This document shows, one piece after another, positions 13,812 to 62,279 of a stretch of DNA of 64,000 nt (position 1 is its first letter; each line of letters starts with the position of its first letter). Made by a program: the position numbers and the translations under genes. This DNA is from Clostridium sp. MB40-C1. GTDB lineage: Bacteria; Bacillota; Clostridia; Clostridiales; Clostridiaceae. The stretch covers positions 1,240,001-1,304,000 of the forward strand of contig NZ_CP133189.1 in assembly GCF_030913655.1 (NCBI RefSeq). Direction: 5' to 3'. Under the pieces are notes generated by a model that ran no database searches, was not told the origin of the DNA, and saw nothing but the letters and a program-made list of their open reading frames with translations.

Positions 13812-13834
13812 AGAATAAAATAAAACACATAGCT

Positions 13835-13866: not shown

Positions 13867-13882
13867 TGGCACAAAATATGCT
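13866..13882 (+). promoter_or_regulatory. Sigma-54 (-24/-12) promoter of PTS operon 1
   Basis: TTGGCACAAAATATGCT has the invariant GG (13868-13869) and GC (13880-13881) with 10 bases between, as in the TGGCAC-N5-TTGC consensus. It lies 44 bases before the EIIC start and directly after the LevR-like gene, which strengthens the call. Confidence 0.85.
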
Positions 13883-13925
13883 GAAATATATGTAAGAATT
13901 ATAATTCTAATAGGAGGGGTATTTT

Positions 13926-15182: not shown

Positions 15183-15207
15183 TAGAATATTTTAGGAGTG
15201 ATTTATT

Positions 15208-15513: not shown

Positions 15514-15532
15514 TTAAGGGGGACTGATAAGT

Positions 15533-15865
15533 ATGAGCACTGAAGAAATTGTATTTAATATAATAAGTCATGCAGGTGATGCACGTTCTATGTGTTTTGA
15601 AGGGTTGGATTTTGCTAGAAAGGGTGATTTTGAAAAGGCAGATGAATTAATTTACAAAGCTAAAAAAGAACTCTATGAAGTTCATAATATACAAACTAGC
15701 TTAATACAAAAAGAGGCTAAAGGAGAAGGTTGTGATGTATCACTGCTTTTAGTACATGCTCAAGACCACCTTATGACAGCAATGCTTGCTAAGGATTTAA
15801 TTATAGAACTTATAACAATGTATAAGTTGAACTTTACTGGAAAGAAAGGTGAGATTAATGAGTAA
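15533..15865 (+). CDS. PTS EIIA, lactose/cellobiose family (operon 1)
   Basis: The 110-residue helical protein has the LLLVHAQDHLM active site: His75 takes phosphate from HPr, and Asp78 is the trimer metal ligand by homology to LacF. The start ATG at 15533 follows GGGGGA. Its TAA overlaps the ATG of the next gene by 8 bases, indicating translational coupling with the GH4 enzyme. The N-terminal FNIISHAGDARS is shared with the operon 2 EIIA, so the two operons are paralogous. Confidence 0.92.
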   Translation: MSTEEIVFNIISHAGDARSMCFEGLDFARKGDFEKADELIYKAKKELYEVHNIQTSLIQKEAKGEGCDVSLLLVHAQDHLMTAMLAKDLIIELITMYKLNFTGKKGEINE

Positions 15866-17168: not shown

Positions 17169-17173
17169 AAATT

Positions 17174-17275
17174 AAGGGTCTATCGGATTAAGAAATTTAC
17201 ATACAATATACTGTTTTGAAAATTTAAATTCAACACAATATATTGTAGAGTTTATTATTAGTGCGACATCCCCTT
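17174..17275. repeat. MITE-like element family A, copy 1
   Basis: About 100 bases with terminal inverted repeats AGGGTCTATCGGATTAA and TTAGTGCGACATCCCCTT (outer AAAATTAAGGG/CCCTTAATTTT also pair). The core contains TACAATATACTGTTTTGAAA and its partial complement ACACAATATATTGTA. A second copy, inverted, is at 32428-32526 with more regular ends (GTCGCATTAA). It has no coding capacity. Confidence 0.75.
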
Positions 17276-17321
17276 AATTTTCAATTATTGATAACTATAA
17301 ATTACTAACAGTCTGCCATTT

Positions 17322-17347
17322 TTAGCCCATTAGGGCTAATTTTTTTT
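17322..17347 (+). terminator. Terminator after PTS operon 1
   Basis: TTAGCCCATTAGGGCTAA folds into a 7-base stem followed by eight T residues. Confidence 0.8.
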
Positions 17348-17481
17348 ACTTAAGTGTAAAGTTCAGCAGCTTGACCTAATAACAATACAAGATCAACTAT
17401 AAGTTTGAATTTTTCATATTATTCTTAATTTACCATTTTTGTATAAAACTAATATGTTACAATAGAATTAAATAAGGTTCT

Positions 17482-17594
17482 GTTTTAAAAGAGGGTTGTT
17501 TTTTACACTCTTTTAAAACTTCCTTTAGTAGTCCTAAGGCTATATTTTTAAATTGTTGAGTTCATTATGAACAATTTACTAAAACATAGCCTTA
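17482..17594. repeat. Two adjacent hairpins, repeat family C, copy 1
   Basis: GTTTTAAAAGAG (17482-17493) pairs with CTCTTTTAAAAC (17508-17519). TAAGGCTATATTTTTAAATTG (from 17535) pairs imperfectly with the complement ending CATAGCCTTA at 17594. The outer ends (CTATGTTTTAGTAAATT on the minus strand, and TTTTAAAACAGA) recur at 61438-61500. It is probably a non-autonomous mobile repeat in the leader of the second activator gene. Confidence 0.5.
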
Positions 17595-17621
17595 AACATA
17601 AAAGGTAAACGGGGGATATAA

Positions 17622-20330
17622 ATGAGCAGAATTGATGAAGTGTATAAGGCTTTAATTGAACTAGAGACGGAAAGTAATGAATATGTTTCGGCTGCTAGAT
17701 TAAGTGAATATATGAATTTAGATAGGGCAAATGTAAGCAGATATCTTAATCAGTTGTTTAAAAATAATAAAATAGAAAAAATTGATGGTAGACCTGTGTT
17801 ATATCATTCTTTAAAAGATAAAAAGGAAGAGGAAAAGAAAACAGATATAGGTAATAGTTTGGACAGAATGATAGGAGCGGAGGCAAGTCTAAAAATAGCG
17901 ATACAACAAGCAAAAGCTGCTATATTCTATCCGCCTAAGGGACTTCATACTCTTATATTAGGAGAAACTGGAGTAGGAAAATCTATGTTTGCAGAACTTA
18001 TGTATCAATTTGCTAAAGAGTCAGGAATGATTGATAAAAATGCTCCATTTATAAGATTTAATTGTGCAGATTATGCTGATAATCCTCAATTAGTAGTAGG
18101 ACAAATTTTTGGAGTTAGAAAAGGTGCTTATACAGGAGCAGAAAATGATAAGGAAGGGTTATTAAAAAAGGCAAATGGAGGGATTTTGTTTTTAGATGAA
18201 ATTCATAGATTATCTCCTCAAGGACAAGAAATGCTTTTTACATATATAGATAAAGGATACTTTAGGCAATTAGGAGATACTGAAAATTTAATAAAGGTTC
18301 AAGCACAAATTATTGCAGCTACTACGGAAGACCCACAATCATACCTTTTGAAAACATTTACTAGAAGAGTACCTATGATAGTAACTCTCCCAGCATTGAG
18401 AGATCGTACAATTAAAGAACGTTATCATTTATTGCAACAATTTATAACTATGGAATCCAAAAGGTTAGAAAAAAATATTTATATAGACAAAAATGCTTTG
18501 ATATCATTTTTATTATATGATTGTCCTAACAATATAGGTCAGTTAAAAAGTGATATACAGCTATCTTGCGCAAAAGCTTTTTTAGATTATAAAACAAAAA
18601 ATTTAGATTATGTTTTTATTGAACAAATAGATTTACCTAAAAGTGTAAAAAAAGGGTTAATGAAAATTCAACAATATAGAGAAGAGGTAAATGACTTACT
18701 TAATGAAAAGCGTGATATACTAATTTTTTATTATGATAACAATATTGAGTATAATTTCTTAGAGGAATCAGACGAATGCGATAAAGATAATTATTTTTAT
18801 GATTTAATAGAAAAAAAGTTTGTAACACTAAAAAATCAAGGAATAGATGAGAAAGATATAAATGATATTCTAAATATAGATATAGAATCTCACTTTGAAA
18901 AATATATGAGTCATTTACCACAAAATTTTCGAAAAGAAGAGATAACAAAAGTAGTTGGTAAGGATATAATCAATGTTGTAGATAAAATCTTGAATTTAGC
19001 AAATAAAAAACTAAATAGGGAATTTGATGAAAAGATTTATTTTGGTTTATCACTTCATTTGCAAAGAAGTATTGAAAGAATTAGACAAGGAAGTAGTATA
19101 TATCATCCTAAACTTAATTTTATAAGATCACAATATGCCAATGAATTTATGGTTGCCATAGAGGTAGCAAAGATAATAGATAATGAATTTAATATTGAGA
19201 CACCATTGGATGAAATAGGATATTTAACTATGTTTTTAGCATCAAATCAATACGAAAATAATATAAATAGTGAGAAGAGGGTAGGAATACTTGTAATAAT
19301 GCATGGAAAATCTACAGCTAGTAGTATGGTTCAAGTATCTAATGAGTTATTAGGTGAAGCTTGTGCAAAAGCTATAGACATGCCTCTAAGTATGAAAGCA
19401 GAAGAGGTGTATGAAATTGCAAAGATTAAAGCTAGAGAATTAGATGTAGATAAAGGTGTTTTATTATTGGTAGATATGGGGTCTCTTAATAATTTTGGGC
19501 CTATGATTTCAGAAGAGACTGGAGTAGAAATAAAAACTATAGATATGGCTAGTACTCCTGTAGTAATAGAAGCATGCAGAAAGTCTCTTTTAGGAAGAGA
19601 TTTAGAATATATATATAATTCTTGTAAAGAACTGAGTAGGCTTGGAATTCAAGTAAAAGTTAAGGATAAAAACGTTAGAAAATTTTTAATAATAACAGCA
19701 TGTTTCACTGGTGAAGGGGCTGCTGAAAGATTGAAAGATATAATATCTAATTCATTGAATATAGATTCAAAGTTAGATATAGTCCCTCTTAATATATTAG
19801 ACAAAAATGATTTCTTATCTAATGTAGAAAAGCTTAGTAACAACTATAAAATTATTGCAGTAGTTGGCACTATAAATATATTTATTAAAGATGTACCATT
19901 TATATCAGCAGCAGAAATTTTAAGTGGAGATGGTATAAATTTATTAAAAGAGTTAGTCAATATAGAGGAAAATTTCTATAAAATAAGAAATTCTATTCAA
20001 AATCATATTAATTTAAAAGATTCTGATAGGTTGGTAGACCTAATAAGAGGAACTATTGAAGTTACGGAAAAAGAATTGAATATAAATCTTCCTAATGATG
20101 TAAAAATAGGAATGATACTTCATATTAGCTTTATGATAGACAAACTTAAAGATGGTGGAGTAGAAAATAATTTTGAGAACTTAAAAGATTATATAAGTAA
20201 ATATAAAAATGAATTTGAAATAATAAATAAGTGTTTTAAACAATTAGAGAAAATTTATGATGTAATTATAGGAAATAGTGAAAAAGCATATATATTAAGA
20301 ATGTTTATTGAAAACAGTGTAATTGTGTGA
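17622..20330 (+). CDS. LevR-like sigma-54 activator with PRD and PTS EIIA domains (operon 2)
   Basis: The 902-residue paralogue of the protein at 11095-13791 shares its domain order: HTH (about 15-60), AAA+ domain with Walker A GETGVGKS at 114-121, GAYTGA at 168-173 and FLDEIH, PRD1 (about 450-550), EIIA-Man-like (VGILVIMHGKSTASS), an EIIB-Gat-like stretch and a C-terminal PRD2. Strong conservation of the central domain shows duplication of the whole regulator-PTS cassette. It is followed at once by a terminator, a cre-like site and a -24/-12 promoter for the amino-sugar-type PTS operon, its likely target. ATG follows GGGGGA. Confidence 0.9.
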   Translation: MSRIDEVYKALIELETESNEYVSAARLSEYMNLDRANVSRYLNQLFKNNKIEKIDGRPVLYHSLKDKKEEEKKTDIGNSLDRMIGAEASLKIAIQQAKAAIFYPPKGLHTLILGETGVGKSMFAELMYQFAKESGMIDKNAPFIRFNCADYADNPQLVVGQIFGVRKGAYTGAENDKEGLLKKANGGILFLDEIHRLSPQGQEMLFTYIDKGYFRQLGDTENLIKVQAQIIAATTEDPQSYLLKTFTRRVPMIVTLPALRDRTIKERYHLLQQFITMESKRLEKNIYIDKNALISFLLYDCPNNIGQLKSDIQLSCAKAFLDYKTKNLDYVFIEQIDLPKSVKKGLMKIQQYREEVNDLLNEKRDILIFYYDNNIEYNFLEESDECDKDNYFYDLIEKKFVTLKNQGIDEKDINDILNIDIESHFEKYMSHLPQNFRKEEITKVVGKDIINVVDKILNLANKKLNREFDEKIYFGLSLHLQRSIERIRQGSSIYHPKLNFIRSQYANEFMVAIEVAKIIDNEFNIETPLDEIGYLTMFLASNQYENNINSEKRVGILVIMHGKSTASSMVQVSNELLGEACAKAIDMPLSMKAEEVYEIAKIKARELDVDKGVLLLVDMGSLNNFGPMISEETGVEIKTIDMASTPVVIEACRKSLLGRDLEYIYNSCKELSRLGIQVKVKDKNVRKFLIITACFTGEGAAERLKDIISNSLNIDSKLDIVPLNILDKNDFLSNVEKLSNNYKIIAVVGTINIFIKDVPFISAAEILSGDGINLLKELVNIEENFYKIRNSIQNHINLKDSDRLVDLIRGTIEVTEKELNINLPNDVKIGMILHISFMIDKLKDGGVENNFENLKDYISKYKNEFEIINKCFKQLEKIYDVIIGNSEKAYILRMFIENSVIV

Positions 20331-20347
20331 ATTAAAAACAAATTGTG

Positions 20348-20382
20348 TAAAAGTGTGTATGTTGAAATACACACTTTTTTCT
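20348..20382 (+). terminator. Terminator of the second activator gene
   Basis: AAAAGTGTGTATGTTGAAATACACACTTTTTT: a 10-base stem AAGTGTGTAT/ATACACACTT with T-run. The stem contains the AATACACAC motif also found before operon 1, so the site may double as an activator site. Confidence 0.75.
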
Positions 20383-20429
20383 TGTAAACGCTTAACTTTA
20401 CACATATAAAAAGTGGCATGCAATTTGCT
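20383..20429 (+). promoter_or_regulatory. Sigma-54 promoter of PTS operon 2 with cre-like site
   Basis: TGGCATGCAATTTGCT (20414-20429) has GG and GC 10 bases apart, a good -24/-12 element 54 bases before the EIIB start. TGTAAACGCTTAAC at 20383-20396 matches 12 of 14 cre positions, suggesting CcpA repression. The promoter is well supported; the cre call is weak. Confidence 0.8.
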
Positions 20430-20482
20430 ATAGAATATATGTAAACATTTACTAAAAACATTAAAAAAAGGAGGAATTGTAA

Positions 20483-20791
20483 ATGAAAAATATTTTATTA
20501 GTATGCACCGCAGGAATGTCTACTAGTTTATTAGTAACAAAAATGAATACGGCAGCTGTAAGGCTTGATGTAGAAGCTAAAATAAATGCTGTTTCAGAAG
20601 CAGACTTAAAAAATCATATTGATGGCGTAGATGTGATTTTGTTAGGGCCTCAAGTGAAATTCTTATTAGGTAAGATAAGGGAACAAGCAAAATCAACTGG
20701 AGCAAAGGTGGAGGTTATAAATAGCGTAGATTATGGCACTATGAATGGTGAAAAAGTTTTAAAATATGCATTAGATTTAATTAATAATTAA
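20483..20791 (+). CDS. PTS EIIB, lactose/cellobiose family (operon 2)
   Basis: The 102-residue protein starts MKNILLVCTAGMSTSLLV, with Cys8 as phosphorylation site. The GPQVKF segment is conserved with the operon 1 EIIB. Gene order in this operon is B-C-A instead of C-B-A, so the two cassettes were rearranged after duplication or come from different donors. AAGGAGG lies 8 bases upstream of ATG. Confidence 0.92.
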   Translation: MKNILLVCTAGMSTSLLVTKMNTAAVRLDVEAKINAVSEADLKNHIDGVDVILLGPQVKFLLGKIREQAKSTGAKVEVINSVDYGTMNGEKVLKYALDLINN

Positions 20792-20853
20792 TAATTAATA
20801 ATTATTAAAGGTTGTGTCAATTAATTATGAAAAAATAATAAGGAGGTATATTT

Positions 20854-22173
20854 ATGCAAAAGCTAATTGATTTTCTTGAAAAACATTTTGTACCTGTAGC
20901 AGGGAGAATAGGTGCTCAAAGGCATTTGGTAGCTATAAGAGATGGATTTGCAGTTATTATGCCATTAATTATTGCTGGATCATTAGGAGTTTTAATTAAT
21001 TCTTTTCCTATTAAAAGTTATCAAAACTTTATGATAGGTATATTTGGAAAAGGTTGGACTAATTTTGGGGGAAACCTCTCAAATGGAACAATTGGACTAA
21101 TGTCATTATTAATAGTTTGTACTGTAAGTTATAATTTAGCTAAATCGTATAATGCGGATGCATTATCATCAGCTATGGTATCTTTTGCAAGTTTGTTTAT
21201 GTTGTATGCACCTTCTTTAAAAGATCCAGATTCAATACCACGTGGATTTATGGGAGCTACAGGATTATTTGTTGCATTATTTGTTGCACTTATAACTACT
21301 GAAATTTTTGTAAGACTTATGAAAAACCCTAAGTTAGTAATAAAAATGCCAGATGGAGTTCCACCAGCAGTTAGTAGATCTTTTGCAGCTTTGTTTCCTG
21401 GAATAATAGTACTTGTAATATGGGCTATTTTCCAATGTATATTATCTGCTACTGGAGTCGAAAGTGCTCATAAACTTATATATGATGCAATACAAGCACC
21501 TTTAATGGGATTTGCAGATTCATTAGGATCAGCTATAGTGATATCACTTTTAGTTCATGTGTTATGGTTCTTTGGTCTCCATGGTACAAATATACTAGCA
21601 CCTGTATTTAATACAGTTTATCTTACAAATGCTAACCAAAATATAGAAGCATTTAAAGCTGGTCAAAAAAGTATACCACATATAGTTACTAGCCCATTCT
21701 TTGATGCTTTTGTACACTTAGGGGGAGCTGGAGCAACAATAGGTTTAGTAATAGCAATATATGTAGCTTCAAAGAGAAAAGAAAAGAGAATGGTTGCAAA
21801 TTTATCAGCAGCGCCAGGTATATTCAATATAAATGAACCAATGATGTTTGGACTACCTATTGTATTAAATGCTTGGTTAATAGTACCATTTATATTAATA
21901 CCTATAATTTTAACTATAATAACTTATTTCGCAATGGCAACGGGATTAGTCCCAAGAACGATAGCTTTAATGCCTTGGCAAACACCACCTATTATTGGAG
22001 GATTTATAGTAACAGGTTCTATAAAAGGAGCTTTACTTGCAGCTTTTAATCTTTTCATATCAGTAGCAATATATCTTCCATTTATATCTATAGGAGAAAA
22101 AATGGAAGATAAAAAGAATAGAAAGCAAGAAAAAACAGTAAAAGTACAAAACGGTATTTCTCAAAATAAATAA
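20854..22173 (+). CDS. PTS EIIC, lactose/cellobiose family (operon 2)
   Basis: The 439-residue permease has about ten membrane segments and the family marks HLVAIRDGFAVIMPLIIAGS, KMPDGVPPAVSRSFAALFPG and NINEPMMFGLPIVLN. The C-terminal tail is lysine-rich (KMEDKKNRKQEK). Family members transport beta-linked disaccharides such as chitobiose or cellobiose. The downstream MupG and sugar-kinase genes make an N-acetylated cell-wall disaccharide the most likely cargo, which is an inference. AAGGAGG precedes ATG. Compared with the operon 1 EIIC, the central loop around 110-150 differs most, as expected for another substrate. Confidence 0.88.
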   Translation: MQKLIDFLEKHFVPVAGRIGAQRHLVAIRDGFAVIMPLIIAGSLGVLINSFPIKSYQNFMIGIFGKGWTNFGGNLSNGTIGLMSLLIVCTVSYNLAKSYNADALSSAMVSFASLFMLYAPSLKDPDSIPRGFMGATGLFVALFVALITTEIFVRLMKNPKLVIKMPDGVPPAVSRSFAALFPGIIVLVIWAIFQCILSATGVESAHKLIYDAIQAPLMGFADSLGSAIVISLLVHVLWFFGLHGTNILAPVFNTVYLTNANQNIEAFKAGQKSIPHIVTSPFFDAFVHLGGAGATIGLVIAIYVASKRKEKRMVANLSAAPGIFNINEPMMFGLPIVLNAWLIVPFILIPIILTIITYFAMATGLVPRTIALMPWQTPPIIGGFIVTGSIKGALLAAFNLFISVAIYLPFISIGEKMEDKKNRKQEKTVKVQNGISQNK

Positions 22174-22194
22174 GAACAGGAGTGAATTTTCAGC

Positions 22195-22491
22195 ATGGAA
22201 GAAATGATACTTAACATTATAACACACAGTGGAGAAGCTAGAAGTTGTGCAATGGAAGCAATACAATATGCAAAAAAAGGTGAATTTGATAAAGCTAAAA
22301 AGTCTATAGAACAGTCTAATGAAGAATTAGGGTTTGCTCACAATTACCAAACGAGTTTAATTCAAGAAGAAGCTAGAGGGAATAAGGCTGAAATATCACT
22401 ATTATTAATTCATGCACAAGATCATCTGATGACTACTATGACATTAAAAGATCTTGCTAATGAATTAGTTGAAGTTTATACAAGACTATAA
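22195..22491 (+). CDS. PTS EIIA, lactose/cellobiose family (operon 2)
   Basis: The 98-residue EIIA has ILNIITHSGEARS at its start and LLLIHAQDHLM with active His73. It is 12 residues shorter at the C-terminus than the operon 1 copy but keeps the whole three-helix core. It starts 21 bases after the EIIC stop with GGAGTG upstream. It phosphorylates the EIIB encoded at 20483. Confidence 0.92.
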   Translation: MEEMILNIITHSGEARSCAMEAIQYAKKGEFDKAKKSIEQSNEELGFAHNYQTSLIQEEARGNKAEISLLLIHAQDHLMTTMTLKDLANELVEVYTRL

Positions 22492-22518
22492 GATTATAAG
22501 ATAAGGCTCTAATAAACA

Positions 22519-22600
22519 GACTTCTAAGGAGTTTTACTTCTTAGAAGTCGTTATCCATGGTCATACAATTCTTAACCCCACTTTGAAAATAAGGTGGGTA
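22519..22600. repeat. Two hairpins between EIIA and the kinase gene (possible IS200/IS605-type remnant)
   Basis: GACTTCTAAG/CTTAGAAGTC (22519-22549) is a perfect 10-base stem. CCCCACTTT/AAGGTGGG (22576-22598) is a shorter one. Subterminal hairpins of this look are common at IS200/IS605 right ends. No transposase remains, so it may equally be an intra-operon processing or attenuation site. Confidence 0.35.
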
Positions 22601-22670
22601 TTAGAAGGTTTAGACATCGGATGAAAGACAATTGTTAGAGTCTTATGATTATGTTACTGGGGGTTGAAAT

Positions 22671-23564
22671 ATGGATTATGTAATAGGCGTGGACGCAGGA
22701 GGAACAAAAACCGAAGCAATAGCTTATGACTTAAATGGTGAACAATTAACGATGGCAGTTACTGGATTTGGAAATTTAGTATTAAAAAAGGATGAAGCTA
22801 TAAATAACATACTAGAGGCTATAGAAAATTGCATAGGCAAATTAGGTAAAGCAGGATTAAAAAAAATATATGTAGGAGCAGCCGGAATGGAGGTAGGTGA
22901 TAATGCAGATATAATACACAAAAGCGTAAAAGAAAAGTTTAATAAAGATGTGCTAGTTGTAAATGATGGAGAACTGGCACTAAAGGCTGTTTTAAAGGGA
23001 GAAGATGGTATACTCACTATAGCTGGAACTGGTTCTATTTGTATAGGAATTCAAGATAATATTAAAGAGAGATGTGGTGGATGGGGACACTTATTAGGCG
23101 ATGAAGGTAGTGGATATTCTATCGCTATAAAGGCATTTAAAAAGATGATTTATGAGAAAGAATGTAATTTGGCTAAAAGCAAATTACATAAGGAAATTCT
23201 TAAAGAATTAAATATAGAAAGTGTTGATGACATTGTAGGAATTGTTTACTCCTCTACAAAGGATAAAATAGCTTCTTTGACTACTTTGATATCAAAATTA
23301 TCAGAAGAAGGAGAAGAAAATGCAGTATCTATATTAAAAGAAGAAGGAAGACTCCTTGGCATGACTACAGAAAGGGTATATAACAGGTTAAATTTTAATA
23401 GCAAATGTATTATTGGAATAAAGGGAAGTGTTATAGAAAATTCTAAGGTTTTAAGACAAGCTTTTGATGAATATTTATTAGCTAATTTAAAAGACATAAA
23501 AATAGTTAATGAAGAAATTTCATCGACTAAAGCTGCTTATTATATGTATTTTAAAGAAAGATAA
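22671..23564 (+). CDS. BadF/BadG-type sugar kinase, N-acetylglucosamine (or MurNAc) kinase-like
   Basis: The 297-residue ASKHA-fold kinase has phosphate 1 motif GVDAGGTKTEAIAYD at residues 5-19, an adenosine region around LTIAGTGSICIG, and the GGWGHLLGDEGSG segment typical of NagK-like BcrAD/BadFG proteins. Characterised relatives include eukaryotic GlcNAc kinase and, in Clostridium acetobutylicum, MurK, which phosphorylates both GlcNAc and MurNAc. It sits 180 bases after the PTS EIIA and 17 bases before mupG. Phosphorylating the free sugar released by MupG is the simplest role. ATG follows GGGGG. Confidence 0.8.
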   Translation: MDYVIGVDAGGTKTEAIAYDLNGEQLTMAVTGFGNLVLKKDEAINNILEAIENCIGKLGKAGLKKIYVGAAGMEVGDNADIIHKSVKEKFNKDVLVVNDGELALKAVLKGEDGILTIAGTGSICIGIQDNIKERCGGWGHLLGDEGSGYSIAIKAFKKMIYEKECNLAKSKLHKEILKELNIESVDDIVGIVYSSTKDKIASLTTLISKLSEEGEENAVSILKEEGRLLGMTTERVYNRLNFNSKCIIGIKGSVIENSKVLRQAFDEYLLANLKDIKIVNEEISSTKAAYYMYFKER

Positions 23565-23581
23565 GGTTTGGAGGGGATTGC

Positions 23582-24667
23582 ATGAAAAAATTAGGAATAT
23601 CTATATATCCATCAAATTCAGATAGTGAAAAAATAAAAAATTATATAGCTCTTGCAGCTAAATATGGTTTTAAAAGAATTTTTACATGTTTGATATCTTC
23701 AGAAAATATGGATATGGATGAATTGATTAGTAAATTTGAAGATATAGTTAAGTTTGCTAATGAAAATGGAATGGAAGTTGTAGCAGATGTTGAACCAAGT
23801 GTTTTTACAAGATTTAAAACTTCTTATTCAGATTTGTCTATTTTTAATGAGATAGGTCTTTATGGTATAAGATTAGATTTGGGATTTAGTGGAATTGAAG
23901 AATCTATAATGTCCTTTAATAAGTATGGAATAAAAGTAGAACTAAACATGAGTAATGGTACAAAATATATAGATAGTGTTTTATCATGTAAACCTAATTT
24001 AGAAAATATATTGGGTTGTCATAATTTTTATCCGCATATATATACAGGACTAAGTTATAAGCATTTTATGAAGTGCAGCAAACAATTTAAAGATTTAGGA
24101 ATAAGAACAGCGGCATTTGTAAATTCAAAAAATGCAGAGTATGGACCATGGCCTGTGTCAGAGGGATTATGTACTTTAGAAATGCACAGAGAATTACCTA
24201 TAGAAGTTCAAGCTAAACATTTGTTTGCTACGGGACTTATAGATGATGTTATTATTGCTAATGCATTTGCTTCAGAGGAAGAACTTAAAGCCTTAAGTAA
24301 AATTAATAAAGATATGTTAGAATTTAAAGTTAATCTTGCAGATAATATTCCAGACGTTGATAAAAAAATAGTTCTTGACGAATTCCATTTCAACAGAGGA
24401 GATGTATCTGATTATCTTGTAAGATCCACTCAAAGCAGAGTTAAATATAAAGGACATAATTTTGAAGTATTTAATGCTGTAGATATAAAAAGAGGAGATA
24501 TATTGATAGAATCTTCATTGTATAAAAGATATGCTGGAGAACTACAAATTGCTCTTAAAGATATGAAAAATTCAGGAAAAACTAATGTTGTAGGTAGAAT
24601 AGTAGATGAAGAAATATTTCTTCTTGACTATTTAGAACCTTGGATGAAATTTAGTTTTACAATATGA
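23582..24667 (+). CDS. mupG: MupG-like 6-phospho-N-acetylmuramidase (DUF871 family)
   Basis: The 361-residue protein opens with KLGISIYPSNSDSEKIKNYI and has a TIM-barrel N-terminal domain plus a C-terminal beta domain (KGHNFEVFNAVDIKRGDILI), the DUF871 layout. In the family, MupG of Staphylococcus aureus cleaves MurNAc-6-phosphate-GlcNAc into MurNAc-6-P and GlcNAc. Length fits (about 350-365). ATG follows GGAGGGG. It ends the operon of a disaccharide PTS and a sugar kinase. MurQ, NagA and NagB, which would finish breakdown, are encoded at 59.3-62.3 kb in the same window. Confidence 0.8.
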   Translation: MKKLGISIYPSNSDSEKIKNYIALAAKYGFKRIFTCLISSENMDMDELISKFEDIVKFANENGMEVVADVEPSVFTRFKTSYSDLSIFNEIGLYGIRLDLGFSGIEESIMSFNKYGIKVELNMSNGTKYIDSVLSCKPNLENILGCHNFYPHIYTGLSYKHFMKCSKQFKDLGIRTAAFVNSKNAEYGPWPVSEGLCTLEMHRELPIEVQAKHLFATGLIDDVIIANAFASEEELKALSKINKDMLEFKVNLADNIPDVDKKIVLDEFHFNRGDVSDYLVRSTQSRVKYKGHNFEVFNAVDIKRGDILIESSLYKRYAGELQIALKDMKNSGKTNVVGRIVDEEIFLLDYLEPWMKFSFTI

Positions 24668-24779
24668 GATATATTATTGATTTAATTTGTTTAAAAGTCC
24701 TACACTAATATGTAGGGAATGTGATTTAATTCAAGTATATTATAGAAATTTAATTTGATGAATTGAAAAAGATATAAAT

Positions 24780-24820
24780 AAAAGCTGAGAATTGTATTTA
24801 AATTCTCAGCTTTTATTTAT
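24780..24820 (+). terminator. Terminator after PTS operon 2
   Basis: AAAAGCTGAGAATT pairs perfectly with AATTCTCAGCTTTT, then ATTTATAT. The remainder of 24668-24971 shows no gene, only AT-rich leader with the helD ribosome site. Confidence 0.8.
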
Positions 24821-24971
24821 ATTTGATCTTTACAAAGTTATATATCAAGGATATAATTGAATTTTGTACACAATTATAGCAATTCTATCATACATCATCT
24901 ATTTACACAATAATTATATCATAACCAAATAATGATGTCAAGAATTTTAAAAAATATGGGAGAGTGGTTAG

Positions 24972-27182
24972 ATGAGTAATTTTAAAGAAAATCAGAAAGA
25001 GGAATTAATGTATCTTGAAAAAACTTTATCAATTATTGAATCCGAACTTGAAAAAGAAAAAGAGGTTTTAAATAAAAGATTGAGTAAGGTTATAGTTTCA
25101 AGAAAAGAGATGTGGGAGGAAAGTGCACACTCTTCAGAAGATTTTGATGGAATACCAGAAATGAATCAATATCTAAATGAAGTCAATATGGAAACAAGAG
25201 ATTATATAAGTACAGAAAAAAGAATTGATAGATATAATAAATTGCTTAAATCCCCTTACTTTGGAAGAGTTGATTTCATTGAAGATGGTTTTAATAAGGC
25301 AGAGAAGATTTATATTGGTTTATATAATTTAATGGACATAAAAACCGATGACATTTATGTATATGACTGGCGAGCTCCTATATCAAGTATATTTTATAGA
25401 AATGAGTTAGGAAAAGGATTTTATAGATCTCCATCAGGTGTGATTTATGGTGATGTTTTATTAAAAAGGCAGTATAAAATTAAAGACTCAAAGATTAAAT
25501 ATTTTTTTGATAGTAATATAAAAATAAATGATGAGATACTTCAGGAAGTACTGGGTAGAAACTCTTCTACTAAAATGAAAAGTATAGTTGAAACTATACA
25601 AAAAGAACAGGATGTTATCATAAGGGATATTGAGAATGATCTTTTAATTGTGCAGGGTGTTGCAGGAAGTGGAAAAACCTCTATTGCACTTCATAGAATA
25701 GCATTTTTACTTTATGAAGGTTTAAATTCAAAATTAGATATAAATAATATTATAATAATTTCTCCAAACTCTATATTTAGTAAGTATATTTCCAATGTAC
25801 TTCCAGAACTTGGTGAAGAAAATGTAGAACAACTAATTTTTGATGATTTTGTTGAAGGTGAGAAAAGGCAAGAACAGATGGAAAGCCTTATAACTCTTCA
25901 GGGAAGTAAGCAATTTAATATAAAACTAGAAAGTATAAAATTTAAGGGATCAGATGATTTTGTAGAAATACTTGATAGACTACTTAAGTATTATGAAAGA
26001 AAATTAATTCCGTTTAAGGATGTGTACTATAATGGTGAAATAATTGAAACAAGTCAGGAGCTAAAGAGCATATTTCTTGATAATAAAATTAATATGCCTA
26101 TAGTTAAAAGACTAAAGAGAATAGAAAAAATGATATTAAATAAGATTTATCCATTAAGAAAGAAAAGGCTTGAAATGATTGAGAAAGTTGTGGAGAGAAC
26201 TACAGAAACTCATATGCTTGAGATAAAATCTTTCAGTAGGCTCATATCAATTAAGGAAGCTAATAAGCTTATGGAATATATTCATAGCTTCACTGAGGTA
26301 AATTATATGAATTTATACAAATTGCTTTTTAGTAATAAAAATCTATTTTTTAGATTAGCTAAAGGTATAAAATTACCAGAAAATATAGATGAAATTATAT
26401 CTGAAACAAACCAAAAACTTAATTTAGGTTATATATCCTATGAGGATGCTGCTTCACTTTTATATATTAAGCTTAAACTAGGTAGCAGCGAAGAATATCC
26501 TGAAATTAAACAAGTAGTAATAGACGAAGCACAGGATTATTATCCAATGCATTATTATATTTTTAAGCTTTTATTTAAAAATGCAAGATATACTATAATG
26601 GGGGATTTTAATCAAACTCTTGAAAAGCATGGAGATAAAAATTTATATGATTATATAGAAGATATACTTTATAAAACAAAGTCTGTAAAGCTTACATTAA
26701 ATAAAAGTTATAGGTCTTCTTTTGAAATTAGCGCTTTTAATCAAAAATTACTTAGCAATAAACAGGAGTTTGTATCTTTTGAAAGGCATGAGGCAACTCC
26801 TAAAGTTAAATTTATGGACAATTTAAGTAAAATGAACCAATCTATTTGTGAAGATGTAATCAAATTTTACAAAATGGGCTATAAGTCAATAGGCATAATA
26901 TGTAAGAGTGAAAAAGAAGCAGAGTATATACATGATAGACTAAGTGATACTATTGATATAAAAATTTTGAACAGGGAAAGTTATGAAAATAAAAATTCGG
27001 TGCTAGTCGTACCTTCTTATTTAGCAAAAGGGTTAGAGTTTGATGTAGTGCTTGTATATAATGTCTCAAAAGAAAATTATAAAAGTGATTTTGATAAAAG
27101 GTTACTTTATGTAGCTTGTACTAGAGCATTACATCAATTAGTTTTATATCATATAGGTGAGAAAAGTGAGTTTATTAACTAA
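24972..27182 (+). CDS. helD: HelD, RNA polymerase recycling helicase-like ATPase
   Basis: The 736-residue UvrD/Rep-related SF1 protein starts with an antiparallel coiled-coil arm (about 5-95). The HelD signature DWRAPISSIFYR (about 132-143) follows, then Walker A GVAGSGKT at 229-236, a helical insertion, Walker B VVIDEAQDYYP, and motif V/VI region (GLEFDVVLVYNV, YVACTRALHQL). In Bacillus and mycobacteria HelD removes stalled RNA polymerase from DNA, its arms entering the secondary and primary channels; mycobacterial HelD also affects rifampicin tolerance. It stands alone between two terminators or repeats. GGGAGAG precedes ATG. Confidence 0.88.
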   Translation: MSNFKENQKEELMYLEKTLSIIESELEKEKEVLNKRLSKVIVSRKEMWEESAHSSEDFDGIPEMNQYLNEVNMETRDYISTEKRIDRYNKLLKSPYFGRVDFIEDGFNKAEKIYIGLYNLMDIKTDDIYVYDWRAPISSIFYRNELGKGFYRSPSGVIYGDVLLKRQYKIKDSKIKYFFDSNIKINDEILQEVLGRNSSTKMKSIVETIQKEQDVIIRDIENDLLIVQGVAGSGKTSIALHRIAFLLYEGLNSKLDINNIIIISPNSIFSKYISNVLPELGEENVEQLIFDDFVEGEKRQEQMESLITLQGSKQFNIKLESIKFKGSDDFVEILDRLLKYYERKLIPFKDVYYNGEIIETSQELKSIFLDNKINMPIVKRLKRIEKMILNKIYPLRKKRLEMIEKVVERTTETHMLEIKSFSRLISIKEANKLMEYIHSFTEVNYMNLYKLLFSNKNLFFRLAKGIKLPENIDEIISETNQKLNLGYISYEDAASLLYIKLKLGSSEEYPEIKQVVIDEAQDYYPMHYYIFKLLFKNARYTIMGDFNQTLEKHGDKNLYDYIEDILYKTKSVKLTLNKSYRSSFEISAFNQKLLSNKQEFVSFERHEATPKVKFMDNLSKMNQSICEDVIKFYKMGYKSIGIICKSEKEAEYIHDRLSDTIDIKILNRESYENKNSVLVVPSYLAKGLEFDVVLVYNVSKENYKSDFDKRLLYVACTRALHQLVLYHIGEKSEFIN

Positions 27183-27420
27183 TTTTTTAATGTAGTCTTA
27201 TAGAAACATCATTTGGATGAAGATAGACAATATAAGAATAAGAAACATTTTATTTTAGTATGTTATTATAGAATGTATAAAGTTTACATATGTCTATACG
27301 ATAACACACTATAGTAACAGTGTTTATATAAATAAGATAAAAACAACTAAAAATTTTAATAATTTAAAATACATTTTAATTGTTTTTTATAATAAATAAT
27401 TATAATATATAAAATATACA

Positions 27421-27500
27421 AGTGAGGAAATTGCATAATTAAAAATTTGAAATACGTAATGCAAGTTTTATGCTTATGGAATTATGCAATTTTCTCAAGT
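27421..27500. repeat. Palindromic repeat family B, copy B
   Basis: GAGGAAATTGCATAATTA at the left end pairs with GGAATTATGCAATTTTCTC at the right end. Inside lies TAATGCAAGTTTTATGC, shared with copy C. It is the only recognisable element of the 27183-27565 gene-free stretch apart from the leader of the next gene. Confidence 0.75.
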
Positions 27501-27565
27501 ATGTGCTTATGTAAATTCAAACAAGTAAATTTTTAGATTTTACTTAAAAAGGAGTGAGATTGAGT

Positions 27566-27961
27566 ATGACACTAGAAATTAATAATAATCTTGATTCAAC
27601 AAACGAATATTTCAAGAGCCTTTGTGAAAAATTTCCAAATATTAAATTTAATATGACTACAGATAAAGTAGGGTCTGGAACTCAATTAACTGTTAACCTT
27701 TCTCCAAAGTTAGTAGAGAAGATGTCAAAAAATCCAAAGTTAGCTGAAGATATTGAAAAAGCGCTTAGCACAGAACCAGCTACATTTGAGTGGCTTAAGA
27801 ATATGTGTAAAACTAATGGACAAGAATTGAGTACTCGTTATGTTGTATATGACGAAAATGGTGAATCTGTTTCTAGCAGTGAATTAAGAACTATTAGTAA
27901 TGACAATTTTAGTAAGATACACAAATATGATGAAAATAGGAATAAGAATATAAAAAAATAA
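27566..27961 (+). CDS. Conserved hypothetical protein (131 aa)
   Basis: The family is not recognised with confidence. The protein is soluble and charged with no signal peptide: a helical start (NEYFKSLCEKFPNIKFNMTT), a strand (GTQLTVNLSP), then KLVEKMSKNPKLAEDIEKAL and a mixed C-terminal half ending in a lysine/asparagine-rich tail. Similar small proteins in clostridia carry a DUF6033-like pattern, which I cannot confirm. ATG 27566 is chosen because GGAG lies 11 bases upstream; a GTG at 27554 overlaps that site. A strong terminator follows at 28001, so it is a single-gene unit. Confidence 0.65.
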   Translation: MTLEINNNLDSTNEYFKSLCEKFPNIKFNMTTDKVGSGTQLTVNLSPKLVEKMSKNPKLAEDIEKALSTEPATFEWLKNMCKTNGQELSTRYVVYDENGESVSSSELRTISNDNFSKIHKYDENRNKNIKK

Positions 27962-28000
27962 CAATCCTAACGTATAATACAAGAAATATGTATTATGCTA

Positions 28001-58554: not shown

Positions 58555-59289
58555 ATGATGAAAACTGTTTCAAAAAAAAGTCCGATACCTCTCCATTATC
58601 AAATTAAAGAAATACTACAAGAGATGATAGAAAATGAAGAATTGAAGCCTGGAGATGCTGTTCCTACAGAAAGAGAACTTTGTGAAATTCAAGGTGTTAG
58701 TAGAATGACAGTAAATAAGGCAATGATGTCTTTGGTTAATGAAGGACTATTATATAGGGAACAGGGTAAGGGCACTTTTGTAGCTAAACCTAAAAAAAGT
58801 AAAGAGATATTAGGTTTAAAAAGTTTTACCGAGGAAATGCAAGAAAAGGGATTAAAAACAGAAACTAAAATTTTGTCTTTTCAAATAAAAGAAGCTACAA
58901 AGAGAATAAAAGCTATTTTGGAAATGCCAAACGATGAGAATAAAGTTATTGAAATCAATAGACTTAGGATGAGTGAAGATGAGCCTGTAGCTATAGAAGC
59001 TGTATGGATACCACATAACTTGTGTAAAGATATGGATAGAGGAACTATAGAAGGTAGGTCTTTATATGAAACTTTCAAAAAAAAATACAACTATTTTCCT
59101 GAAAAAGCAAAACAAACTATAGAACCTATAATTTTAAATGAAGATGAGTGTAAACTTTTAAATCAAAATGAAAATGCTTTGGCATTAATGTTTAGAAGAA
59201 TAACTTATATACAAGATGAAGTTCCAATAGAATATACAAAGTCAATATATAGAAGTGATATATATAAATATGAGTTGATTTTAAAGTAA
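58555..59289 (+). CDS. GntR/HutC-family regulator of amino-sugar genes (NagR-like)
   Basis: The 244-residue repressor has an N-terminal GntR winged helix (about 10-78, PLHYQIKEILQEMIENEELK, SRMTVNKAMMSLVNEG, REQGKGTFV) and a C-terminal UTRA ligand domain (EMQEKGLKTETKILSFQIKE, VWIPHNLCKD, EYTKSIYRSDIYKYELIL). YvoA/NagR relatives sense glucosamine-6-P or GlcNAc-6-P. It opens an operon with murQ and nagA (59- and 25-base gaps), and nagB follows, supporting that role. Two adjacent ATG codons are possible; AAGGGA fits the first. Confidence 0.87.
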   Translation: MMKTVSKKSPIPLHYQIKEILQEMIENEELKPGDAVPTERELCEIQGVSRMTVNKAMMSLVNEGLLYREQGKGTFVAKPKKSKEILGLKSFTEEMQEKGLKTETKILSFQIKEATKRIKAILEMPNDENKVIEINRLRMSEDEPVAIEAVWIPHNLCKDMDRGTIEGRSLYETFKKKYNYFPEKAKQTIEPIILNEDECKLLNQNENALALMFRRITYIQDEVPIEYTKSIYRSDIYKYELILK

Positions 59290-59347
59290 TTAGTTAATAT
59301 TAATTAAACATGAATTATCCTAACCTTAAGGGAAAGAGGGGGAACTT

Positions 59348-60220
59348 ATGAGTGAAAGAAATATAAATACTATTGATCTAGATACTTTAAGTACTTTGGA
59401 AATAATAAGAAAAATAAATGAAGAAGATGAAAAAATAGCAAAAGCTATAAAAGAAGAAGAAGAGAATATAGCTACTGCTATAAATATTATTGTTAAAACC
59501 TTAAAAGAAGGGGGGAAAATGTTCTATATAGGTAGTGGAACTAGTGGAAAGCTTGGAGTTATAGATGCTTCAGATTGTCCTCCAACTTTTGGTGTTGAGG
59601 ATTCTTTAGTACAAGGCATTATATCAGGTGGAGATGCAGCTGTAAGTGGGTGGCTTGAACATACTGAAGATGATAAGGAATTGGCTATAGAGGACCTAAA
59701 GGCAAGAAAAATAACCAATAAAGACGTTTTAATTGGAATAACTGCTAGCGGTAATACTCCTTATGTAAATAGTGCTATAAAATATGCAAATGAGTTGGGA
59801 TGTAGAACTATAGGCATTATGTGTAGTAAAAGTGGATCTATTAGAAACATATGTGATTTAACTATAGCTGTAGATGTTGGAGCAGAAGTTATAATGGGTT
59901 CCACAAGAATGAAAGCTGGAACTGCACAAAAAATGATTTTAAATATGTTAAGTACTACCGCCATGATTAAGCTGGGAAAAACTTATTCTAATCTTATGGT
60001 TAATGTAAAACCTATAAATGATAAGCTAAAAGAGAGAGTTAAAGAGATAGTTATGTTGGCAACAGGTAAAAATTTAGCAGTGGTGGAGAAAATTCTTATG
60101 GAATGCAACTATGACCCTAAAACTGCTATAGTTATGATTAAAACAGGAATTTCAGTTAAGGAAGCACATGAAAAGCTAAAATTACATAATGGTAGAGTTT
60201 ACGATGCTTTAAAAGGCTGA
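59348..60220 (+). CDS. murQ: N-acetylmuramic acid 6-phosphate etherase
   Basis: The 290-residue SIS-domain lyase has the strongly conserved FYIGSGTSGKLGVIDASDCP, PTFG, GGDAAVSGWLEHTEDD and ITASGNTPYV motifs, with catalytic Glu in the EHTEDD region. It converts MurNAc-6-P to GlcNAc-6-P and D-lactate. The C-terminal helical part (NLAVVEKILMECNYDPKTAI) is complete. It is cotranscribed with the GntR regulator and NagA. Its substrate could come from MupG cleavage of imported MurNAc-6-P-GlcNAc, encoded in operon 2. Confidence 0.95.
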   Translation: MSERNINTIDLDTLSTLEIIRKINEEDEKIAKAIKEEEENIATAINIIVKTLKEGGKMFYIGSGTSGKLGVIDASDCPPTFGVEDSLVQGIISGGDAAVSGWLEHTEDDKELAIEDLKARKITNKDVLIGITASGNTPYVNSAIKYANELGCRTIGIMCSKSGSIRNICDLTIAVDVGAEVIMGSTRMKAGTAQKMILNMLSTTAMIKLGKTYSNLMVNVKPINDKLKERVKEIVMLATGKNLAVVEKILMECNYDPKTAIVMIKTGISVKEAHEKLKLHNGRVYDALKG

Positions 60221-60244
60221 TATTTTAGATATGGGGGGATTAAT

Positions 60245-61387
60245 ATGAAGGCTATAATTAATGGAAAAATTATAATAGAAAATAAGATTTTAGAAGATAA
60301 AGTTTTATTTTTTGATGAAAAAATAGTTGACATATTGAATGTAGATGATGCTCATTTAGAGAAAGCTAATAAGGTGATTGATGCTAAGGGACGATATATT
60401 TCACCAGGGTTTATAGATGTTCACATACATGGTGCCGGTGGAAAAGATACTATGGATGGAGAGTTAGAGGCTATAAAAGTTATAAGTAATACTATAGCTA
60501 AGACTGGAGTAACATCATTCTTGCCGACTACCATGACTATGGATAGAAAAGAGATATATACTGCTTTGGACATTATAAAACAGGCTATGAATATGGATTT
60601 AGGTGGTGCTAAGGTTTTAGGAGCACATTTAGAAGGACCTTTTATTAATCCTAAATATAAAGGTGCTCAAAATGAAGAGTTTATGATAAAGCCAAGCCTT
60701 GATTTTATTAAGGGCTATGAAGATATAATTAAAATTATTACCTTTGCACCAGAAAGAGACGAGGACTTTAAGTTTTTAAAGGATGTTAAGAAAAGCACAA
60801 ATATAGCTTTGTCTATAGGCCATTCAGATGCTACATATGAACAAGCAATAAAAGCTATAGAAAACGGAGTAAGTCGTGCTACCCATACTTTTAATGCTAT
60901 GACTCCGTTACACCATAGAAAGCCAGGAATAATAGGTGCTATTCTAAATACTGATATATCTTGTGAACTGATAGCTGATAATATACATGTTCATAAAGGT
61001 GCTATAAATCTTCTTGTTAGCGGTAAGAGTACAGATAAGGTTATATTAATTACAGATTCTATGAGAGCAGGATGTATGAAAGATGGTATTTGGGAACTAG
61101 GTGGTTATAAGGTTATTGTAAAGAATGGTTCTGCCAGACTAGAAGATAATACTTTAGCAGGAAGTATTTTAACTTTGGATAATGCTATTAAGAATATGAG
61201 GGAGAATATAAGTGCTCCTTTGTATGAAATCGTGTCGATGGCAACAGTTAACCCTGCTAAAGATATAAATATATATGATAGAAAAGGAAGTATTGAAAAA
61301 GGAAAAGATGCTGACATTGTTATTTTTGACGAAGATGTTAATGTTAGTATGACAATTGTTGAAGGAAATATTGTCTATGAAAAATAG
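60245..61387 (+). CDS. nagA: N-acetylglucosamine-6-phosphate deacetylase
   Basis: The 380-residue amidohydrolase-superfamily enzyme has metal/His motif FIDVHIHGAGG (H60, H62), GAHLEGPFI, SIGHSDATYEQA and ATHTFNAMTPLHHR for substrate and metal, the catalytic Asp in LITDSMRAG, and the closing GKDADIVIFDEDVNV. It deacetylates GlcNAc-6-P to GlcN-6-P. GGGGGGA precedes ATG, 25 bases after murQ. It supplies NagB, encoded 157 bases later after a small repeat. Confidence 0.95.
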   Translation: MKAIINGKIIIENKILEDKVLFFDEKIVDILNVDDAHLEKANKVIDAKGRYISPGFIDVHIHGAGGKDTMDGELEAIKVISNTIAKTGVTSFLPTTMTMDRKEIYTALDIIKQAMNMDLGGAKVLGAHLEGPFINPKYKGAQNEEFMIKPSLDFIKGYEDIIKIITFAPERDEDFKFLKDVKKSTNIALSIGHSDATYEQAIKAIENGVSRATHTFNAMTPLHHRKPGIIGAILNTDISCELIADNIHVHKGAINLLVSGKSTDKVILITDSMRAGCMKDGIWELGGYKVIVKNGSARLEDNTLAGSILTLDNAIKNMRENISAPLYEIVSMATVNPAKDINIYDRKGSIEKGKDADIVIFDEDVNVSMTIVEGNIVYEK

Positions 61388-61437
61388 ATATTATTGATTT
61401 GAATTACTAGATATAATTTGTTATTAAATTAATAAAA

Positions 61438-61500
61438 GGGCTATGTTTTAGTAAATTCTTGATTTTGTATAATTTCAAAAACAACATTTTTTAAAACAGA
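61438..61500. repeat. Repeat family C, copy 2 (between nagA and nagB)
   Basis: GGGCTATGTTTTAGTAAATT (61438-61457) and TTTTTTAAAACAGA (61487-61500) match the two outer ends of the 17482-17594 copy in inverted order, with a shorter interior of unrelated AT-rich sequence. Confidence 0.5.
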
Positions 61501-61544
61501 GTCTCATAAAAAAGAAAAATTTAATTTTAATGAGGTGTATTTTG

Positions 61545-62279
61545 ATGAGAATTATAGTAGTAGATGGTTATGAAGAAATGAGTAAAAAAGCAGCAAATAT
61601 GGTAGTGAGTCAAGTTATTTTAAAACCAGATAGTGTTCTTGGATTAGCAACTGGAGATACTCCTATAGGAATGTATGAGGAAATTATAAGTCTTTATAAA
61701 AACGAGGAAGTAGATTTTTCTAAGGTTAAAACTTTTAATTTAGATGAATACTATGGTTTAAGTAAAGAAAATCCACAAAGTTATCATTATTATATGATAA
61801 ATCACTTATTTAATCATGTAAATATTTATGAAAATAATATTAATATTCCTAATGGAATGGCTCAAAATATAGAATCAGAGTGTAAAAATTATGATAAAAA
61901 AATAGTGGAAGTTGGAGGGATTGACTTACAAGTTCTTGGCATTGGAGTTAATGGACACATTGGATTTAATGAGCCTGATATAAGTTTTGAATCAGAAACT
62001 CATTTAGTTAATTTAGATGAAAAGACTATAGAGTCCAATTCAAGATTCTTTAATTCAAAAGAAGAGGTTCCAACAAAAGCTATAAGTATGGGAATTAAGA
62101 CTATAATGCATTCAAAAAAAATAATTTTATTGGCTTGCGGTAGTTCAAAAGCTAATGCTATTTTTGAAACTATAAATGGGAAAATCAATCCTAATATGCC
62201 AGCGTCTATTCTTCAATTGCACAGAGATGTTGTTGTTATTGTAGATAAAGAAGCTGCTAGTAAATTAAATTTAGATTAA
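61545..62279 (+). CDS. nagB: Glucosamine-6-phosphate deaminase
   Basis: The 244-residue isomerase-deaminase has GLATGDTPIGMYEEI, VKTFNLDEYYGL (catalytic Asp/Glu pair), GIGVNGHIGFNEP (active-site His, with GHIGFNEP the family signature) and KAISMGIKTIM. It converts GlcN-6-P to fructose-6-P and ammonia. ATG 61545 is preferred because GAGGTG lies 8-9 bases upstream; the in-frame ATG at 61530 covers that site. It ends the amino-sugar pathway of this locus; a terminator follows at 62326. Confidence 0.95.
   Translation: MRIIVVDGYEEMSKKAANMVVSQVILKPDSVLGLATGDTPIGMYEEIISLYKNEEVDFSKVKTFNLDEYYGLSKENPQSYHYYMINHLFNHVNIYENNINIPNGMAQNIESECKNYDKKIVEVGGIDLQVLGIGVNGHIGFNEPDISFESETHLVNLDEKTIESNSRFFNSKEEVPTKAISMGIKTIMHSKKIILLACGSSKANAIFETINGKINPNMPASILQLHRDVVVIVDKEAASKLNLD

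What the first reader, a model, noticed from the sequence alone, without database searches (positions are those of the whole stretch)
20414..24667. PTS operon built to import and split a MurNAc-GlcNAc-type disaccharide, under a sigma-54 activator
Seen: -24/-12 promoter, Lac-family EIIB-EIIC-EIIA, a BadF-type kinase and a MupG-like hydrolase in one unit, with the LevR-like activator gene directly upstream. Known: MupG of S. aureus cuts MurNAc-6-P-GlcNAc, but there it works with a MurP-type (sucrose-family) EIIBC; C. acetobutylicum MurK phosphorylates MurNAc and GlcNAc. Inferred: here a lactose/chitobiose-family PTS replaces MurP, and the kinase rescues the GlcNAc released by MupG. MurQ, NagA and NagB at 59-62 kb would complete the path to fructose-6-P. 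I know of no described example of this regulator-transporter-enzyme combination, but I could not search.
Basis: partly seen in the sequence, partly recalled or inferred. Interest (0 to 1): 0.75.

Follow-up and report, generated by a model that had tools for sequence, protein, structure and literature searches.

The report
Probable chitin-sugar uptake and splitting operon
A Clostridium carries a sigma-54-controlled operon that probably imports a two-sugar fragment of chitin and splits it with an enzyme whose family is known from cell-wall recycling; a sister operon elsewhere in the same genome is a better candidate for the cell-wall version.

Summary
In detail: sigma-54 activator, -24/-12 site, Lac-family EIIB-EIIC-EIIA, BadF-type kinase and GH170 (MupG/DUF871) hydrolase form one unit (17622-24667). 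The MurNAc-GlcNAc reading is not supported. Among 192 GH170 proteins, S. aureus MupG and kin sit with MurP and MurQ and in 0 of 68 cases near a BadF kinase; the window enzyme (26% identical to MupG) is in another clade, linked to Lac-family PTS, kinase and sometimes AnmK. AnmK needs anhydroMurNAc, a reducing end without free O6, so in those operons the PTS must phosphorylate GlcNAc. I infer that this clade cuts GlcNAc-6-P-X. For the window, X is most likely GlcNAc (N,N'-diacetylchitobiose): no AnmK in its subclade, an EIIC motif shared with B. burgdorferi ChbC (whose neighbour BBB07 is a GH170 of this clade), and two chitinase-like genes 40 and 60 kb away. A second operon at 1.70 Mb, with AnmK and MurQ, is the better peptidoglycan candidate. 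GH170 with a Lac-type PTS for chitobiose was published for L. paracasei in January 2026: a new variant of a known kind. No activity was measured; every substrate is inference.

The parts
17622..20330 (+). LevR/DagR-like sigma-54 activator (AAA, PRD, EIIA-man, PRD)
   Evidence: Pfam; NCBIfam DagR 522 bits, below its cut-off of 1400
20349..20378 (+). terminator-like hairpin after the activator gene
20414..20429 (+). -24/-12 (sigma-54) promoter site TGGCATGCAATTTGCT
20483..20791 (+). Lac-family EIIB
20854..22173 (+). Lac-family EIIC, motif WFFGLHGTN
22195..22491 (+). Lac-family EIIA
22492..22670 (+). structured dispersed repeat between EIIA and kinase genes; not thought to be part of the pathway
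22671..23564 (+). BadF-type sugar kinase (MurK/NagK-like)
   Evidence: Pfam; MurNAc/GlcNAc kinase structure 8zo3, E 2.9e-38
23582..24667 (+). GH170 (MupG-family) 6-phospho-glycosidase, Lac-PTS clade
   Evidence: Pfam; 1x7f E 3e-124; tree and context
58555..62279 (+). GntR regulator, MurQ, NagA, NagB: probable shared downstream steps

Best explanation
A chitobiose operon. The activator, presumably set by PTS phosphorylation of its PRD/EIIA domains, opens a sigma-54 promoter. EIIA-EIIB-EIIC import N,N'-diacetylchitobiose and phosphorylate O6 of the non-reducing GlcNAc. The GH170 enzyme cuts GlcNAc-6-P-GlcNAc, without prior deacetylation, into GlcNAc-6-P and GlcNAc; the BadF-type kinase turns the GlcNAc into GlcNAc-6-P; NagA and NagB carry both to fructose-6-P. 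Shown by sequence: gene content, promoter, clade, linkage. Inferred: every substrate and reaction.
For: GH170 tree of 192 non-redundant proteins. In the 120 of them from whole-genome sampling, window's clade versus rest: Lac EIIC 44/57 vs 2/63, MurP 2/57 vs 56/63, BadF kinase 22/57 vs 0/63, AnmK 10/57 vs 0/63. Window GH170: 18-row group, SH-aLRT 96, 0/18 AnmK; another 17-row group (93), 0/17 AnmK, 11/17 with NagA/NagB. Window kinase: 7-row group (99), 0/7 AnmK-linked. B. burgdorferi cp26: a GH170 47.5% identical to the window's follows the EIIA and EIIB genes beside a divergent EIIC gene, by their coordinates chbA, chbB, BBB07 and chbC (PMC2229028, passages); chbC mutants do not use or import chitobiose (PMC4331090, PMC8612929, passages), and a mutant lacking both bb0002 and bb0620 still used it (PMC2845121, passages and a legend). 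EIIC residue three after the conserved His: N in the window, B. burgdorferi ChbC and 12/12 NagAB-linked; S or A in 30/30 AnmK-linked. Two GH18 genes with ChitinaseA_N or ChiC domains about 40 and 60 kb upstream. L. paracasei chbC and chbE mutants fail on chitobiose (PMC12791066).
Against: The 1.70-Mb paralogue, 67% identical, sits with AnmK and MurQ, so the enzyme alone does not give the substrate. Whole EIIC does not discriminate: 337, 329 and 288 bits to 3qnq for the window, 1.70-Mb and window PTS-1 EIIC; 37% identity to B. burgdorferi ChbC for the first two. 3qnq, by recall a chitobiose transporter, has T and B. nietonii has A where the window has N. 17 of 49 rows without AnmK also lack the N, and on independent pairs the AnmK-residue link is not significant (6 pairs). 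NagA linkage does not differ between the clades (3/57 vs 6/63). The clade boundary was the split that best separated EIIC from MurP; its own support is low (11), though a nested 118-row set has 100 and keeps 97 of 100 Lac-only and 1 of 61 MurP-only rows. L. paracasei ChbE itself was not in hand. Whether this host grows on chitin is unknown.
Confidence: 0.6

Rival explanations
1. The operon takes up GlcNAc-MurNAc (lysozyme-type peptidoglycan disaccharide), phosphorylates the GlcNAc, GH170 frees MurNAc, the kinase makes MurNAc-6-P and MurQ at 59 kb finishes.
For: Kinase resembles a MurNAc/GlcNAc kinase; the close paralogue sits with AnmK and MurQ; MurQ is 35 kb away.
Against: No MurQ or AnmK in the unit; 0/18 of its GH170 group have AnmK and 1/18 has MurQ nearby, there in a divergent MurP cluster; EIIC motif unlike the AnmK-linked ones; the genome already has such a set at 1.70 Mb.
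Confidence: 0.18
2. One reading: MurNAc-GlcNAc is imported, GH170 acts as MupG, the kinase rescues GlcNAc.
For: Same Pfam family as MupG; the genome has no full MurP-type match (two partial ones, best 38% over query residues 5-103), so something could replace it.
Against: 26% identity to MupG, different clade, different partners. Does not explain AnmK in sister operons.
Confidence: 0.09
3. Cellobiose or another beta-glucoside: GH170 as a 6-phospho-beta-glucosidase, one of the possibilities its authors raised for B. coagulans CELO2.
For: NCBIfam lactose/cellobiose-family IIC; a B. coagulans strain with CELO2 besides CELO1 used cellobiose faster than one with CELO1 alone (PMC6271610, passages).
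Against: A complete Lac PTS with a GH4 enzyme lies just upstream (13926-17168); a MurNAc/GlcNAc-type kinase in the unit and NagA/NagB beside many relatives (11/17 in one group) point to amino sugars.
Confidence: 0.08

Closest known systems
L. paracasei chb cluster (ChbRCDE/ChbBA; GH170 ChbE)
   Same: cellobiose-type PTS plus GH170 enzyme, NagA needed downstream; chbC and chbE mutants fail on chitobiose (PMC12791066)
   Different: GntR repressor, DUF3284 protein ChbD and no kinase there; here sigma-54 activator, kinase, and no DUF3284 gene found within 7 kb of the GH170
B. burgdorferi chbA-chbB-BBB07 / chbC (cp26)
   Same: Lac-family PTS next to a GH170 of the same clade, 47.5% identical
   Different: no kinase or LevR-like gene in the annotated 10.8-kb stretch; BBB07 is annotated as an alpha3-beta1 integrin-binding protein
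S. aureus mupG-murQ-murP-murR
   Same: GH170 family, 6-phospho-disaccharide logic (PMC6262408, passages)
   Different: MurP transporter, MurQ in operon, MurR/RpiR regulator, GH170 only 26% identical, no kinase gene in the stretch
B. coagulans CELO2
   Same: regulator, Lac-type PTS and DUF871 gene in one operon (PMC6271610, passages)
   Different: assigned to cellobiose; five genes celR, celB, celA, celX, celC, no kinase among them
E. coli chb operon
   Same: chitobiose PTS that phosphorylates the non-reducing GlcNAc (PMC12791066 text)
   Different: ChbG deacetylase, then a GH4 enzyme; here GH170 and no ChbG-like gene among the unit's five

Membership tests
GH170 / MupG family (fold) | MupG_N and MupG_C domains over full length | tested here: met
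   321 and 134 bits
MupG proper (6-phospho-N-acetylmuramidase) | groups with S. aureus MupG and MurP-linked proteins | tested here: not met
   26% identity; other clade
MupG proper (6-phospho-N-acetylmuramidase) | MurP and MurQ as neighbours | tested here: not met
MupG proper (6-phospho-N-acetylmuramidase) | cuts MurNAc-6-P-GlcNAc | not testable with these tools
   needs enzyme assay
Lac-family PTS | separate Lac-type EIIA, EIIB and EIIC | tested here: met
Chitobiose PTS | imports and phosphorylates N,N'-diacetylchitobiose | not testable with these tools
   motif LHGTN shared with B. burgdorferi ChbC is only a hint
L. paracasei-type chb cluster | DUF3284 protein (ChbD) with the GH170 gene | tested here: not met
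   HMM of 30 DUF3284 proteins finds none near the window GH170
MurK/NagK-type kinase | BadF/BcrAD family | tested here: met
   NagK_SO3507 93 bits, below its cut-off of 370
MurK/NagK-type kinase | substrate GlcNAc and/or MurNAc | not testable with these tools
   needs assay
LevR/DagR-type sigma-54 activator | sigma-54 AAA plus PRD plus EIIA-man domains, -24/-12 site at the target | tested here: met
DagR equivalog (NCBIfam) | score above the curated cut-off | tested here: not met
   522 against 1400 bits

The most novel reading that the evidence does not exclude
The Lac-PTS-linked GH170 clade is a family of 6-phospho-beta-N-acetylglucosaminidases acting on GlcNAc-6-P-X, with X = GlcNAc, MurNAc or anhydroMurNAc. 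With AnmK, a MurK-like kinase and MurQ it forms a PTS route in Firmicutes for peptidoglycan disaccharides, a counterpart of the AmpG-NagZ-AnmK route of Gram-negatives; without them it is a chitobiose route, and Borrelia BBB07, annotated as an integrin-binding protein, is the missing chitobiose-6-phosphate hydrolase.
Probability: 0.5. Interest if true: 0.72.

Novelty: new variant of a known kind. Interest (0 to 1): 0.5.

Why it matters
It suggests a transport route for anhydro sugars in Gram-positive bacteria (AnmK beside 33 of those 124), and it offers an enzyme for the chitobiose-6-P step of the Lyme spirochaete, which the papers I saw in passages leave open.

Tried and rejected
MurNAc-GlcNAc substrate (clade, partners and the AnmK argument speak against it). 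Whole-EIIC similarity as a substrate test: not discriminating. A regular expression for the EIIC motif missed many rows and was replaced by an alignment. AnmK versus EIIC residue on independent pairs: too few events. Search for chbD-chbE loci through DUF3284 in 295 Lactobacillales genomes: 132 have a match, none of the 30 loci returned (1.5 kb flanks) holds a GH170; five GH170 loci already fetched have DUF3284 nearby. Search for papers on the bcChbC binding residues: none. Rfam: nothing at gathering score in 10000-28000. Only BadF-type kinases were looked for beside GH170, not ROK or other kinases. No structure was predicted. Signal peptides of the chitinase-like proteins were judged by eye.
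Full report
What is there. The unit is real. An activator gene (17622-20330; sigma-54 AAA, PRD, EIIA-man) is followed by a terminator-like hairpin (20349-20378) and an exact -24/-12 site at 20414, then EIIB, EIIC, EIIA, a BadF-type kinase and a GH170 (MupG/DUF871) gene, with terminator-like hairpins after it. The site is not chance: with at most one mismatch, 31 of 33 activator-to-PTS gaps carry it, against 0.47 expected; 6 of the 33 rows are second copies of one locus. The genome has one RpoN match. Just upstream (11095-17168) lies a second activator with a Lac-type PTS and a GH4 enzyme.

A second copy tells more. The genome (3.89 Mb, one contig; nearest named relative for the GH170 gene Clostridium brassicae, 97%) has one other GH170, at 1.70 Mb, 67% identical. 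Its order is EIIB-EIIC-GH4-EIIA-small gene-activator-BadF kinase-AnmK-GH170-MurQ, with a -24/-12 site before EIIB. So there are two Lac-PTS/GH170 operons, one with AnmK and MurQ and one, the window's, without. No full MurP-type EIIBC was found in the genome (two partial matches, best 38% over query residues 5-103).

GH170 falls into two groups. I gathered 80 named loci close to the query (the best 80 of 188, so biased to the window's kin), 4 plasmid anchors, 5 regions of congeners, and 140 regions: 31 from a search of 391 Clostridia genomes (31 with a hit), 105 from 398 Bacilli genomes (122 with a hit) and 4. Of the places listed I left out fragments, places already in hand and part of the large 226-245-bit group of Bacilli. 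233 proteins gave 192 at 90% identity. The split that best separates Lac-type EIIC from MurP gives 124 and 68 proteins. Within 7 kb, over all 192: Lac EIIC 103/124 vs 2/68, MurP 5/124 vs 61/68, BadF kinase 60/124 vs 0/68, AnmK 33/124 vs 1/68, MurQ 29/124 vs 60/68. In the 120 from the 140 regions alone: 44/57 vs 2/63, 2/57 vs 56/63, 22/57 vs 0/63, 10/57 vs 0/63, 10/57 vs 56/63; NagA does not differ (3/57 vs 6/63). EIIC and MurP were used to choose the split, kinase and AnmK were not. The one AnmK in the rest lies in a neighbouring Lac operon (L053). The split's own support is 11; a nested set of 118 has 100. Three proteins at its edge (L115, L116, L118) have MurQ, two of them with kinase and AnmK, and no labelled PTS gene nearby. 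S. aureus MupG is in the rest, B. burgdorferi BBB07 in the window's clade. Rows are related, so the counts are not independent events.

Why GlcNAc and not MurNAc would carry the phosphate. This is inference from chemistry (recalled): anhydroMurNAc occurs only at the reducing end, its O6 is tied up in the 1,6-anhydro bond, and AnmK acts on the unphosphorylated sugar. A PTS that delivers a disaccharide to AnmK must therefore have phosphorylated the other sugar, GlcNAc, and the hydrolase beside it must cut GlcNAc-6-P from the rest. The MurNAc-GlcNAc model leaves AnmK unexplained. The same reading fits L. paracasei, where a cellobiose-type PTS and GH170 ChbE are needed for growth on N,N'-diacetylchitobiose and the authors propose GlcNAc-6-P plus GlcNAc as products, with an unknown kinase (PMC12791066, parts 1, 3, 4, 5 of 8). 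ChbE itself was not available. In my set, all five GH170 genes with a DUF3284 gene within 7 kb, as in that cluster, are in the window's clade, at 40-41% identity to the window and 25-26% to MupG; the paper gives 26% between ChbE and MupG.

Why chitobiose for the window. (a) In a tree of 94 GH170 proteins the window is in an 18-row group (SH-aLRT 96) with no AnmK; another 17-row group (93) has none and 11 of 17 have NagA/NagB; a 52-row group (83) holds all 30 AnmK-linked rows and the 1.70-Mb copy; the two Borrelia rows stand apart. (b) The kinase tree agrees: 7-row group (99), none AnmK-linked. (c) After the conserved EIIC histidine the motif is HGTN in the window and in B. burgdorferi ChbC; N in 12 of 12 NagAB-linked rows, 31 of 57 with neither AnmK, MurQ nor NagAB (the window and B. 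burgdorferi among them), 1 of 3 with MurQ only, 0 of 30 AnmK-linked. Against this: few changes on the tree, no significance on independent pairs, 17 of 49 rows without AnmK also lack the N, B. nietonii has A, and 3qnq has T. (d) The host encodes two proteins with GH18 and chitinase accessory domains, N-terminal signal-like stretches by eye, about 40 and 60 kb upstream of the operon; two further GH18 genes look by eye like other functions (LysM-like or fibronectin-like parts). (e) In B. burgdorferi chbC mutants do not use or import chitobiose (PMC4331090, PMC8612929, passages), a double mutant in two annotated candidate hydrolases still used it (PMC2845121, passages and a legend), and a GH170 gene directly follows the EIIA and EIIB genes, BBB07 by its coordinates (PMC2229028, passages). 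I saw no paper that gives BBB07 this role (listings; passages of PMC4331090, PMC2229028, PMC8612929, in the last of which the name does not occur); most of the listed papers I did not open.

What is known and what is new. GH170 plus Lac-type PTS is in print in two papers seen (PMC12791066; PMC6271610, passages). MupG and its clades are published (PMC6262408, passages), with the warning that paralogues may have other substrates. New here as far as I could search: the two-way split by transporter and kinase, the AnmK argument, the pair of operons in one genome, and the recurring sigma-54 control. Searches for a PTS route with AnmK listed 6 and 12 papers; of these I opened passages of PMC5061867, PMC13391275 and PMC6262408 only, and none describes it. 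The term phospho-beta-N-acetylglucosaminidase occurs in one held paper. Subscription papers are mostly not held.

Class-specific residues. Among 121 of the clade (the three edge proteins left out) and 68 others, the clade carries a two-residue insert (P189-W190, 95%; gap in 100% of the rest), S182 (93%; G 90%) and N227 (96%; D 97%); E200 and R203 are among the residues shared by both. Borrelia has a longer but different loop there. 1x7f shows GPW and 2p0o does not, so each group seems to have a solved structure.

Noticed in passing
window 22492-22670: A strongly structured element (fold -59.1 kcal/mol, z -5.7) lies between EIIA and kinase genes. Best Rfam match RAGATH-9 at 19.5 bits, far below its cut-off of 75.2.
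   Followed up: partly
L003 6826-17596 (own genome near 1.70-1.71 Mb): Second operon EIIB-EIIC-GH4-EIIA-activator-kinase-AnmK-GH170-MurQ, candidate for uptake of GlcNAc-(anhydro)MurNAc.
   Followed up: yes
L097 4767-5864 (B. burgdorferi cp26): BBB07, annotated as alpha3-beta1 integrin-binding protein, is a GH170 beside the chitobiose PTS genes.
   Followed up: partly
window 53951-56040: Glucose-family EIICB gene next to a shortened EIIC copy (185 aa), 79% and 72% DNA identity in two pieces. In L015 a like cluster holds MurP and a MupG-type GH170, absent here.
   Followed up: partly
window 11095-17168: Second sigma-54 activator with Lac-type PTS and GH4 enzyme, -24/-12-like site with one mismatch.
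   Followed up: no
window 529-4134: PPDK_N/PEP-utiliser protein (rifampin phosphotransferase-like by recall) next to MFS pieces in two frames; described only.
   Followed up: no
L242 6963-9065: 700-aa protein with a chitinase-type N-terminal domain, convergent with the chitinase-like gene.
   Followed up: no
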